Part shown: in pieces, positions 11,338-61,759 of the stretch
Numbering within the stretch: the stretch's first letter is position 1
Layout of the letters: the number at the start of each line of letters is the position of its first letter
From: Isoptericola cucumis
Lineage (GTDB): Bacteria; Actinomycetota; Actinomycetes; Actinomycetales; Cellulomonadaceae
NCBI RefSeq assembly: GCF_014635665.1
Contig: NZ_BMDG01000011.1
Coordinates: 62,001-126,000 of the forward strand
Direction: 5' to 3'
Length of the DNA: 64,000 nt
Notes under the pieces: model-generated
Databases searched by the model: none
Seen by the model: the letters and a program-made list of their open reading frames with translations, nothing else
Told to the model about the DNA's origin: nothing
Position numbers and translations under genes: made by a program

Positions 11338-11388
11338 ACGATGACGAAGGGCGCGCCCGGCGATGCCGGACGGGCCCTTCGTCATCGT
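11338..11388. terminator. Bidirectional intrinsic terminator
   Basis: Arms ACGATGACGAAGGGC (11338-11352) and its exact complement (11374-11388) form a 15-base stem around a 20-base loop that extends the pairing. It sits between the plus-strand DUF721 gene and the convergent minus-strand surface-protein gene. Like many high-GC terminators it has no clear T-run. Confidence 0.75.
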
Positions 11389-19683: not shown

Positions 19684-19726
19684 ACGACGACGCCCTGTCC
19701 TCCTCCGGAGGGCAGGGCGTCGTCGT
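19684..19726. terminator. Intrinsic terminator after tRNA-Ala
   Basis: A perfect 14-base stem (19684-19697 with 19713-19726, ACGACGACGCCCTG arm) has a 15-base loop, directly after the tRNA and before the convergent gene at 19771. It probably serves both directions. Confidence 0.8.
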
Positions 19727-20763: not shown

Positions 20764-20857
20764 GGACCCACTCTGCCACCAGGTCACGAGCCACGCAGTG
20801 GTACACGCCCCGGACGCCGGGACGATCCGGGAGAGGGAGTGGTGAGAGGATGTGCCC

Positions 20858-21397
20858 ATGTTCGCAACCCTCCACACCACGGCCGGTGACATCCGCATCG
20901 AGCTGCTGCCGAACCACGCGCCCAAGACCGTCGACAACTTCGTGGGGCTCGCCAAGGGCACGAAGACGTGGACGGACCCGCGCACCGGCGCCGAGCGCAA
21001 CGACCCGCTGTACGACGGGGTGATCTTCCACCGCGTCATCGACAGCTTCATGATCCAGGGCGGCGACCCCCTGGGCACCGGTACCGGCGGCCCCGGGTAC
21101 GCGTTCGAGGACGAGATCCACCCCGAGCTCGCGTTCACCGAGAAGTACATCCTCGCGATGGCCAACGCCGGCAAGCGCCGCAACCCGGTGACGGGCGACC
21201 TCGAGGGCACCAACGGGTCGCAGTTCTTCATCACCACCACCGAGACGCCGTGGCTGACCGGCAAGCACACCATCTTCGGCAAGGTCGCGGACGACGAGTC
21301 CCGCGCCGTCGTCGACGCCATCGGCACCACCCGCACGCGCCCCGGCGACCGTCCCGTCGAGGACATCGTCATCAACAGCGTCACCATCGAGGACTGA
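20858..21397 (+). CDS. ppiA: Peptidyl-prolyl cis-trans isomerase (cyclophilin)
   Basis: The predicted 179-residue cytoplasmic cyclophilin has no signal peptide. Signature regions are visible: VIFHRVIDSFMIQGGDP contains the catalytic arginine, and TNGSQFFITTTETPWLTGKHTIFGKV is the rest of the active site. It catalyses proline isomerisation during folding. ATG at 20858 is favoured because GAGAGGA lies at good spacing; a GTG two codons upstream is the alternative. It is conserved downstream of the gyrase region in Actinomycetota, followed by the rhomboid gene. Confidence 0.95.
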   Translation: MFATLHTTAGDIRIELLPNHAPKTVDNFVGLAKGTKTWTDPRTGAERNDPLYDGVIFHRVIDSFMIQGGDPLGTGTGGPGYAFEDEIHPELAFTEKYILAMANAGKRRNPVTGDLEGTNGSQFFITTTETPWLTGKHTIFGKVADDESRAVVDAIGTTRTRPGDRPVEDIVINSVTIED

Positions 21398-21424: not shown

Positions 21425-21527
21425 GGCCGGGGTCGAGGATGTTTCGTCGCAGTCGCGTTCACGCGCCCCAGGGGGCGCTCCACTTCGGGAAAGATACGAC
21501 TGCGACGAAACATCCTCGACCCCGGCC
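21425..21527. repeat. Long perfect inverted repeat (31-base arms)
   Basis: The left arm 21425-21455 and right arm 21497-21527 are exact reverse complements over 31 bases (the left arm begins GGCCGGGGTCGAGG). The 41-base spacer contains a second small hairpin, GCGCCCC with GGGGCGC, at 21463-21478. It fills most of the gap between the cyclophilin stop and the rhomboid gene. The stem is far longer than needed for a terminator and is not followed by a T-run. A miniature mobile element, a structured RNA or a strong terminator are the options. Confidence 0.85.
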
Positions 21528-21574
21528 TTCTCCCCGGCCGCGCTGACGTTCCACCGCCCACGGAGGGCTGAGCC

Positions 21575-22435
21575 ATCTCCACACCCGAGCCGCAGCCGGC
21601 CGCCGGCCCGCCCGTCTGCCCCCGGCACCCCGACCGCGTGTCGTACGTGCGCTGCCAGCGCTGCGGGCGGCCCACCTGCCCGGAGTGCCAGCGCCCGGCG
21701 CCCGTGGGGATCCAGTGCGTCGACTGCGTGGCGCAGGCCGCCAAGGCCGTGCCCACCCAGCGCACCGCGTTCGGCGGTGCCGTGCGCGGCGGGCGTCCGG
21801 TCGTCACGCTGACCATCATCGGGATCTGCGTGGTGAGCTGGGTGCTGCAGCTCGTCACCGGCGGGGACTGGACCCAGCGGTGGGCGTTCGCGCCGGTCGT
21901 CGGGATCGAGGAGCCGTGGCGGTTCCTCACCGCCGCGTTCCTGCACTCCAGCAGCGTGCTGCACATCCTGTTCAACATGTACGCGCTGTGGCTCGTAGGG
22001 CCGTTCCTCGAGCAGGTCTTCGGGCGGGGGCGCTTTGCCGCCCTGTACGTGCTGTCCGCCATCGGCGGGTCCGTGGGCTACCTGGTGCTGGCGACGCCCA
22101 CGATCGACGGCGGGTGGGCGACGCCGGTGGTCGGGGCGTCGGGCGCCGTCTTCGGCCTGTTCGGCGCGATCATCCCCGTGCTGCGCCGCATGGGGCGCAA
22201 CGCCACCCAGATCGTCGTGCTCATCGCCATCAACATGGCGATCCCGTTCTTCGTGCCCGGGATCGCCTGGCAGGCCCACCTGGGCGGTCTCGTGGTGGGG
22301 CTGGCCCTGGGCGCGGGCTTCGCGGCCGCCCCGCGGGAGCGTCAGGCCCTCGTCGGCTGGCTGCTCCCGGCGGTCGTGGGCGTCGTCCTCGTCGCCGTGA
22401 CGGTCTGGCGGTACACCGCCGTCGGGTGGATCTGA
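21575..22435 (+). CDS. Rhomboid-family intramembrane serine protease with zinc-binding N-terminus
   Basis: A 286-residue protein if it starts at ATC 21575. The N-terminus carries CPRHPDR, CQRCG, CPEC and CVDC, the actinobacterial rhomboid zinc-ribbon. Six transmembrane helices follow, with the catalytic serine S189 in GASGAVFG and H235 in WQAHLGG. The first in-frame conventional start (GTG 21638) would delete the first Cys-His pair. In-frame TGA just before 21575 rules out an upstream start. An ideal GGAGGG ribosome-binding site lies seven bases before the ATC. Rare ATC initiation, or a base change in an original ATG, is the likely explanation. Confidence 0.85.
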   Translation: MSTPEPQPAAGPPVCPRHPDRVSYVRCQRCGRPTCPECQRPAPVGIQCVDCVAQAAKAVPTQRTAFGGAVRGGRPVVTLTIIGICVVSWVLQLVTGGDWTQRWAFAPVVGIEEPWRFLTAAFLHSSSVLHILFNMYALWLVGPFLEQVFGRGRFAALYVLSAIGGSVGYLVLATPTIDGGWATPVVGASGAVFGLFGAIIPVLRRMGRNATQIVVLIAINMAIPFFVPGIAWQAHLGGLVVGLALGAGFAAAPRERQALVGWLLPAVVGVVLVAVTVWRYTAVGWI

Positions 22436-61491: not shown

Positions 61492-61510
61492 CGGGCAGCG
61501 GGCAGCAGGA

Positions 61511-61572
61511 AGCCCGCGGGCTGGAGGTCGAACCTCCTGCCGTGCTGGACGAGGGCACGGCACCCGCGGGCT
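61511..61572. other. Three-way-junction RNA fold / possible terminator downstream of idi
   Basis: The outer stem AGCCCGCGGG (61511-61520) pairs perfectly with CCCGCGGGCT (61563-61572). Inside are two complete hairpins: GGAGGT-CGA-ACCTCC (61523-61537), and a 7-base stem GCCGTGC/GCACGGC (61539-61561) with a 9-base loop, joined by only one or two bases. It lies in the 350-base gap between idi and the NmrA-like gene and would fold from either strand. It may be a bidirectional terminator or a small RNA. Confidence 0.65.
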
Positions 61573-61686
61573 CCGGTGGTCGCGAGGAACTCGCTACCCG
61601 TCCCGCGCGCCGACCGGGCTCGACGGCTGGTCAGCAGACGTAGGCCGTCGGGTCCGGCAGCGCGAAACGCTCAAGGGCGCACGCGA

Positions 61687-61725
61687 CTAGCGCGCGACCA
61701 CCTCATGGGTCCGAAGAGTCTTCAC
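61687..61725 (-). CDS. Possible 12-residue peptide with strong Shine-Dalgarno
   Basis: On the minus strand the bases 61745-61732 read AAGGGAGGTGATCC, an extended Shine-Dalgarno sequence. GTG at 61725 follows, opening MKTLRTHEVVAR and a TAG. No downstream gene is on this strand. It could be a leader or regulatory peptide, or chance. Confidence 0.35.
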   Translation of the reverse strand: MKTLRTHEVVAR

Positions 61726-61750
61726 TGCGTCGGATCACCTCCCTTCTCAT
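61703..61750 (-). CDS. Possible near-leaderless 15-residue reading frame
   Basis: ATG at 61750 lies nine bases after a -10 box and would be nearly leaderless. It encodes MRREVIRRSEDSSDP before TGA and covers the Shine-Dalgarno of the other short frame, so the two would influence each other. Confidence 0.3.
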   Translation of the reverse strand: MRREVIRRSEDSSDP

Positions 61751-61759
61751 GTGCCGACG

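What the first reader, a model, noticed from the sequence alone, without database searches (positions are those of the whole stretch)
21425..21527. 31-base-arm perfect inverted repeat with nested hairpin
Two identical 31-base arms around a 41-base spacer that itself has a hairpin. It is too long for a standard terminator, has no T-run, and shows no flanking target duplication that I can see. Perfect arms imply recent origin or strong selection: a miniature transposable element, a REP-like element or a structured regulatory RNA affecting ppiA or the rhomboid gene.
Basis: seen in the sequence. Interest (0 to 1): 0.6.

Follow-up and report, generated by a model that had tools for sequence, protein, structure and literature searches.

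The report
Capped hairpin repeat at gene ends
A perfect DNA hairpin just after a bacterial gene belongs to an apparently undescribed family of repeats that share the same tip on freely varying but matching arms; most sit at gene ends, where they may help stop transcription, and they offer a natural test of how paired DNA arms stay matched.

Summary
The inverted repeat is real: 31/31 perfect arms, 41-nt spacer, beyond chance. What repeats is not the arm (a 23-base piece of it occurs only here) but the spacer, a conserved "cap". The own genome has 6 copies; 18 of 18 genomes of the genus, own included, have it (apparently Isoptericola), as do other Promicromonosporaceae, and one rumen "Eubacterium" MAG has 10. 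In 99 copies the cap sits on ~30-bp arms that differ by locus yet pair 97% Watson-Crick. Of 97 caps found by cap sequence alone, 93 have arms. Most follow stop codons, in sense, often between convergent genes, with a one-sided T-rich tail; four lie in frame inside genes, arms still matched. Orthologous arms change in pairs (105 paired, 28 one-sided), and relatives carry the cap inverted in place. Best reading: a dispersed, REP-like palindrome, its arms kept matched by DNA template switching, settled at gene ends and probably acting there as a terminator. Cap function and spreading mechanism are unknown. The listed paper searches found no description.

The parts
21425..21455 (+). left arm (P1, 5' side); outer ~22 bp locus-specific, inner ~9 bp semi-conserved in the family
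   Evidence: inner conservation
21456..21496 (+). conserved cap (spacer), CGTTCACG-P2-CTCCACTTCGGG-..., the part that is repeated across loci
21463..21478 (+). nested hairpin P2 (6 bp, 4-nt loop); some pairs flip C-G/G-C in the family
21479..21490 (+). weak hairpin P3, TCC-ACTTCG-GGA; two inner pairs nearly invariant, the outer pair unpaired in 31 of 97 copies
21497..21527 (+). right arm (P1, 3' side), exact reverse complement of the left arm
21528..21533 (+). tail TTCTCC; the first base after the arm is T in 72 of 99 copies
20852..21397 (+). cyclophilin-type peptidyl-prolyl isomerase (ppiA); 27 nt lie between its stop codon and the left arm
21638..22435 (+). rhomboid-family gene downstream, tandem orientation (true start may lie further upstream)

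Best explanation
The feature is one copy of a dispersed palindromic DNA repeat: a conserved ~41-nt cap (plus ~9 semi-conserved bp) on ~30-bp arms whose outer ~20 bp are locus-specific. Shown by sequence: family membership, usual position after stop codons, sense bias, T-rich tail, paired changes, opposite cap orientation at the same site in relatives, and a few in-frame copies inside genes. Inferred: whole elements have been copied to new places by an unknown route. Inferred: DNA-polymerase template switching copies one arm onto the other, which keeps them Watson-Crick matched while they drift, and now and then inverts the cap. Inferred: at gene ends the transcribed hairpin acts as an intrinsic-type terminator or 3'-end barrier, most useful between convergent genes.
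For: Family: 6 places in the own genome, 18 of 18 genomes of the genus, 9 of 41 of the family. Pairing: 99 copies, 3012 arm pairs, 2926 Watson-Crick, 22 G.T, 36 A.C, 28 other, 43 copies perfect; 1011 double-change cells against 252 in shuffles. Not an effect of searching with a paired model: 93 of 97 in-family caps found by cap sequence alone have arms of at least 20; random positions score at most 11 against an element median of 28.5; 130 cap-like hits in viral contigs score at most 8 on a slightly harsher scale. Place: of 99, 66 between convergent genes, 19 tandem sense, 8 tandem antisense; single convergent copies nearer the own-strand gene 37 to 1; T-tail 86 to 6; median 30.5 nt from the stop for 86 copies. 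3' of crp: 14 of 18 genomes carry it; the other four show another hairpin by eye. Template switching: 105 paired changes (61 transversion type) against 28 one-sided (2 G.T) in 25 of 113 orthologous pairs; adjacent paired changes 26 against 16.2 expected, 2 of 1000 (outer part only: 23 against 16.5, 36 of 1000); cap orientation reversed at ppiA and in the hydrolase-ligase linker. Inside genes the arms still match (27 to 31 pairs, one mismatch in four copies). Mechanism precedent: PMC8604942, PMC8794818 (abstracts and passages).
Against: No transcript data. Antisense: 8 of 27 tandem copies and the ppiA copies of G010 and G003, which lack a T-tail by eye. Four of 99 copies lie inside genes, three antisense and one sense, where termination would be pointless or harmful. 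In the rumen MAG no real U-run follows the arm. Arm length is 28-32 in 77 of 99 and similar in the MAG, which neither termination nor template switching explains. At the glpK-like site the arms of G000 and G001 are identical although the flank differs by 11%, so arms do not always drift fast. G.T against A.C is not significant overall (22 to 36, p 0.087). One of five measures (further pair types) equals the shuffles (241 of 500). The local gene-pair control is biased against convergence. The 25 orthologous pairs share genomes.
Confidence: 0.55

Rival explanations
1. A purely selfish mobile palindrome of REP/MITE kind; the cap is the recognition site of an unidentified enzyme, and gene ends and protein linkers are merely where insertions are tolerated.
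For: In-frame copies in the linkers of glycine dehydrogenase and of a hydrolase/AMP-ligase; the former linker is 58 residues against 25 in PDB 4lgl. Match rows vary from 2 to 53 per genome of the genus (rows can count both strands). Copies at different loci share arms, identity up to 1.0 in G012 and 0.95 in G009. Patchy by site (ppiA 6 of 18) and lineage (1 of 392 in the order of the rumen MAG). Shared borders: C before 67, G first 78, T after 72 of 99.
Against: No Y1 transposase in 18 genomes. No plasmid match and no phage-record match for the MAG copy. Tolerance alone does not give the sense bias (37 to 1, 17 to 6) or the one-sided T-tail.
Confidence: 0.25
2. A structured 3'-UTR RNA: the cap binds a protein or the ~30-bp duplex is cut by RNase III, setting mRNA stability.
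For: Three-way-junction-like fold with covarying P2; sense bias after stop codons; cap motifs kept in two phyla.
Against: G.T pairs are rare (22 of 3012; 1 of 219), unusual for an RNA-selected helix; arms also match inside coding genes; no Rfam family at gathering score for the element; in the permissive scan all 15 hits are below threshold, 13 of them microRNA hairpins.
Confidence: 0.12
3. A DNA-level structure (cruciform or hairpin) used by replication, repair or nucleoid proteins, with transcription incidental.
For: Nearly Watson-Crick-only arms, reversed caps, arms of about three helical turns, copies inside genes.
Against: Link to stop codons, sense bias and T-tail.
Confidence: 0.05
4. 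A chance or purely local palindrome.
For: The arm piece searched is unique in the genome.
Against: Cap copies at many loci and species, with their own matching arms.
Confidence: 0.01

Closest known systems
REP / BIME repetitive extragenic palindromes (GTAG and CGTC super-families, PMC3733652)
   Same: Palindromic, multi-copy, mostly downstream of and between convergent genes, often in opposed pairs; some inside genes (abstract).
   Different: REPs are 20-40 bp; CGTC stems are 8-9 bp with 4-5 nt loops (section 6). Here the loop is conserved, the ~30-bp stem is not, the tag is absent (CGTC 2 of 99, GTAG 0 of 99) and no RAYT-type transposase is found.
Intrinsic (Rho-independent) transcription terminators
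   Same: G+C-rich hairpin just after the stop codon, T-enriched right side, sense bias; 3' of crp other hairpins stand where it is missing.
   Different: Stem much longer than usual (recalled), conserved cap, weak T-tract, dispersed as a family, a few copies inside genes.
Template-switch-maintained inverted repeats (yeast coding IRs, PMC8604942; rRNA stems, PMC8794818)
   Same: Arm homogenisation, multi-base paired changes, spacer inversion.
   Different: There unrelated, mostly short-armed loci; here one repeat family with ~30-bp arms and a conserved spacer.
Palindromic elements inserted in frame in Rickettsia genes (RPE; recalled)
   Same: Palindrome found in frame in protein-coding genes.
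   Different: Relationship not tested; no sequence compared.
Integron attC sites (recalled)
   Same: Variable palindromic part next to conserved motifs, strand-asymmetric tip.
   Different: In attC the ends are conserved and the middle varies; here the reverse. Cassette arrays were not searched for.

Membership tests
REP (GTAG/CGTC) | terminal GTAG or CGTC tag | tested here: not met
   0 and 2 of 99 directly before the left arm
REP (GTAG/CGTC) | 20-40 bp palindrome with family-specific conserved stem | tested here: not met
   ~100 nt, stem variable, loop conserved
REP (GTAG/CGTC) | downstream or convergent location, opposed pairs | tested here: met
   66 of 99 convergent; 16 of 16 two-copy loci in the list of 99 are + then -; one tandem same-strand pair seen outside it (G026)
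REP (GTAG/CGTC) | associated RAYT (Y1) transposase | tested here: not met
   PF01797 in 0 of 18 genomes, found in 5 of 14 control genomes
Intrinsic terminator | stable hairpin after the stop codon, sense to the gene | tested here: met
   for most copies; not for 8 antisense tandem and 4 in-gene copies
Intrinsic terminator | U-tract directly after the hairpin | tested here: inconclusive
   T at +1 in 72 of 99 and T-enriched tail; no U-run in the rumen MAG
Intrinsic terminator | RNA 3' ends at the site | not testable with these tools
   no transcript data
MITE | terminal inverted repeats shared between copies | tested here: not met
   arms mostly differ between loci, apart from subfamilies in G009 and G012
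MITE | target-site duplication | not tested
   no close filled/empty pair was at hand; none seen by eye around the window copy
Rfam structured RNA | match to a curated family at gathering score | tested here: not met
   only below threshold

The most novel reading that the evidence does not exclude
A mobile hairpin that writes its own arms: on arrival the ~60-nt cap unit is joined to ~20 bp of local sequence and an inverted copy of it, which gives locus-specific matching arms of similar length (~31 bp in two phyla) with shared borders (C|G...C|T), afterwards kept identical by template switching. That would be an inverted target duplication as an insertion mode.
Probability: 0.08. Interest if true: 0.85.

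Novelty: new variant of a known kind. Interest (0 to 1): 0.62.

Why it matters
Palindromic repeat families are usually recognised by conserved stems; here the stem is free and the loop is kept, so an arm-based search misses it. Dozens of copies with orthologues in many species give a natural series for asking whether paired changes arise in one step by template switching or in two steps by selection; the copies inside genes, where a terminator cannot be the reason, sharpen that test. The same cap in Actinomycetota and one Bacillota MAG, in both mostly after stop codons, hints at an unknown factor or mobility system that reads it.

Tried and rejected
Arm search for targets elsewhere: a 23-base piece of the arm, up to 3 mismatches, matches only the two arms of this copy. 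Rfam: nothing at gathering score for the element; the sub-threshold hits look like long-hairpin artefacts. REP-type transposase: none. Plasmids: no match for two MAG copies and the window cap; phage records: only one MAG copy searched, no match. Outsiders in the cap scan: six of 98 loci; L150 is real, L176, L195, L227, L233, L235 lack matching arms and are treated as chance (about 3 chance hits expected by my estimate). Weak arm-region BLAST hits in other families (G036, G048, G052) were not followed. Considered and dropped: insertion of the cap into loops of ordinary terminators, because arm length varies little and inner arm bases travel with the cap. In G001 the hairpin 3' of crp has homologous arms without the cap; the junction fits a cap deletion, but a pre-insertion state is not excluded. 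MAFFT placed that gap poorly, so the comparison rests on reading. Orientation comparison: 95 ortholog pairs same, 64 opposite; most opposite ones come from sites with two facing copies, so only ppiA and the hydrolase-ligase linker are read as reversals, and L120/L133 stays open. The gene-pair control (51 of 76 element-bearing pairs convergent against 10 of 109) is biased, since neighbours of a convergent pair cannot be convergent; against a generous one third, 51 of 76 is still about 6 standard deviations off (hand calculation). A regex element finder missed copies and was replaced by the covariance model. The first clustering test mixed inner and outer positions and was redone. Checking the five copies not placed showed four to lie inside genes and one at a contig edge; because of this I put mobility into the best explanation and lowered the RNA rival from 0.15 to 0.12.

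Full report
Observation. The arms 21425-21455 and 21497-21527 are perfect reverse complements around a 41-nt spacer with its own hairpin. The structure is outside chance: folding z -9.83, 0 of 200 shuffles as good; no perfect repeat with arms of 14 or more in three Markov shuffles. It begins 27 nt after the stop codon of a cyclophilin gene and precedes a rhomboid gene on the same strand.

What repeats. A 23-base piece of the arm occurs only here, but BLAST with the whole region hits 25 of 58 genomes (own included), and most hits cover the spacer rather than the arms. Reading the hits shows one conserved cap, CGTTCACG-hairpin-CTCCACTTCGGG-..., on arms that differ from place to place and pair with each other. 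A 22-copy alignment gives 98.3% standard pairs, 31 of 40 pairs with changes on both sides, covariation 0.705 against 0.170 in shuffles and at most 0.136 when slid. With 97 copies, on an alignment fitted to the model: 96.7% paired, 0.735 against 0.153; one of the five measures, further pair types, does not exceed the shuffles (241 of 500).

Distribution. A covariance model finds 6 places in the own genome and matches in 18 of 18 genomes of the genus, own included, with 2 to 53 rows each (rows can count both strands). In the order 7 of 297 genomes match, in the family 9 of 41, 6 of 25 genera, in the class 2 of 394, both of the genus; these larger scans used strict filters and scored few candidates per genome (13, 100 and 10), so their negatives are weak. 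A cap-only pattern scan of named genomes returned 98 stretches in Isoptericola, Krasilnikoviella, Puerhibacterium, Xylanimonas, Promicromonospora and Myceligenerans plus six outsiders. Contig lengths suggest that the genus is Isoptericola (inference). Of 97 in-family caps in that scan, 93 have arms of at least 20 positions although arms were not part of the pattern.

A second phylum. One outsider, a rumen MAG filed as Eubacterium, is real: its genome holds 10 copies with the same cap motifs, most with a longer P2 whose stem covaries (GCCC/GGGC, GACC/GGTC, GCAC/GTGC). In eight of 10 a same-strand open frame of at least 90 codons ends shortly before the element; in one (L302) it ends 180 nt before the cap and the element overlaps a long opposite frame, and in one (L306) the upstream frame is on the other strand (frames, not called genes). 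Arms start 25-32 nt before the cap and hold 203 Watson-Crick pairs, 1 G.T, 4 A.C and 11 other. Of 392 genomes of its order only this one has the exact pattern. Mis-binning cannot be ruled out; the copies lie on eight contigs, and the one locus measured has 47% G+C.

Position and polarity. Of 99 copies, 66 lie between convergent genes, 19 between tandem genes in sense, 8 in antisense, 1 divergent, 5 were not placed (simple gene caller). Single copies between convergent genes are nearer the gene on their own strand in 37 of 38 cases; single tandem copies are sense in 17 of 23. In the list of 99, all 16 loci with two copies have them facing each other; a same-strand tandem pair occurs in G026. 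The base after the right arm is T in 72 of 99, the base before the left arm C in 67. In the own genome the other copies follow a carbohydrate kinase, a Crp-type regulator, a ribosome hibernation factor, a VanY-like peptidase and a class-III aminotransferase.

Inside genes. Four of the five unplaced copies lie in frame inside genes: in G004 and G031 in the linker of glycine dehydrogenase (element codons 500-534 of 1033 in G004, between the two halves), and in G012 and G007 in the linker of a hydrolase/AMP-ligase (Pfam run for three of the four). Against PDB 4lgl the glycine dehydrogenase linker is 58 residues instead of 25. Three of the four are antisense, one sense; their arms still pair with one mismatch in all. 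In the hydrolase-ligase the cap points in opposite directions in G007 and G012. These copies cannot be terminators of their genes; they speak for insertion and for matching of arms without a termination role.

A conserved site. In the space 3' of crp 14 of 18 genomes carry one or two copies, with strands that fit crp or a facing gene (the facing gene was not called in every genome), and with different arms in most. The other four (G001, G004, G008, G010) show by eye another hairpin there (only that of G001 was folded). In G001 the arms resemble those of G014 and G015 but the cap is missing.

How arms stay matched. In 3012 arm pairs 97.1% are Watson-Crick, with 22 G.T and 36 A.C (p 0.087 for the difference). 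An RNA-selected helix should favour G.U; this one does not. In 25 orthologous pairs with arm identity of at least 0.70, of 113 compared, 105 positions changed on both sides (61 transversion type, which cannot pass through G.U alone), 28 on one side (2 G.T, 16 A.C, 10 other) and 2 on both sides without Watson-Crick pairing. Adjacent paired changes are in excess (26 against 16.2, 2 of 1000; outer part alone 23 against 16.5, 36 of 1000). The pairs share genomes and are not independent. At ppiA the cap reads forward in G000, G005 and G013 and backward in G010, G003 and a decayed copy in G015; by eye one arm of G003 resembles the G000/G005 type and the other the G010 type. Arm homogenisation and spacer inversion are the two signs of template switching described in PMC8604942 (abstract and passages) and PMC8794818 (abstract and passages). 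With perfect arms, inversion of the cap alone and of the whole element look the same.

Spread. In G012 and G009 some copies at different loci share arms (identity up to 1.0 and 0.95) and a little flank, so whole elements seem to be copied. No enzyme was identified; Y1 transposases were not found in 18 genomes.

What is not explained. The narrow range of arm length (28-32 in 77 of 99) in two phyla, the shared borders, the kept motifs of the cap, the antisense copies and the missing U-run in the MAG. Terminator function is inferred from position, polarity and tail only.

Known or not. REP families share location but not build. Paper searches for Cellulomonas, Isoptericola and Promicromonosporaceae repeats, palindromic intergenic repeats, actinobacterial terminators, conserved-loop repeats and the cap letters gave no description in the rows listed (listings only, some cut to the top 10-20 of many); the library lacks most subscription journals.

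Noticed in passing
L105, L106, L108-L111, L113 (genomes G009, G012), around and between the paired elements: Arrays of a separate ~18-20-nt repeat, GCGAGTCAGCGCA plus a few bases, mostly pointing inward from the gene ends on both sides.
   Followed up: no
L140 around 1700-1921; L015 around 1475-1626: Two caps in tandem with shared or duplicated arms, as if the palindrome had been partly re-copied.
   Followed up: no
L109, beyond the right-hand element: An arm of the element, with a few flanking bases, is repeated in tandem outside it.
   Followed up: no
window 61503-61752, - strand: Match to Rfam Ms_IGR-5 (actinobacterial sRNA), 50.9 bits against a gathering score of 45.
   Followed up: no
window 11338-11388 and 19684-19726: Two ordinary perfect hairpins (15 and 14 bp) with TCGTCATCGT / CGTCGTCGT ends, the second 10 nt after a tRNA gene; they may be host terminators, with tails like that of the element.
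   Followed up: no
L288 around 2195-2270 (G001, 3' of crp): Hairpin with arms resembling capped copies in G014 and G015 but without the cap.
   Followed up: partly
L092 1501-1602, L064 1501-1598, L131 1496-1594, L081 1501-1599: Copies of the element read in frame as part of proteins, in linkers between domains.
   Followed up: partly
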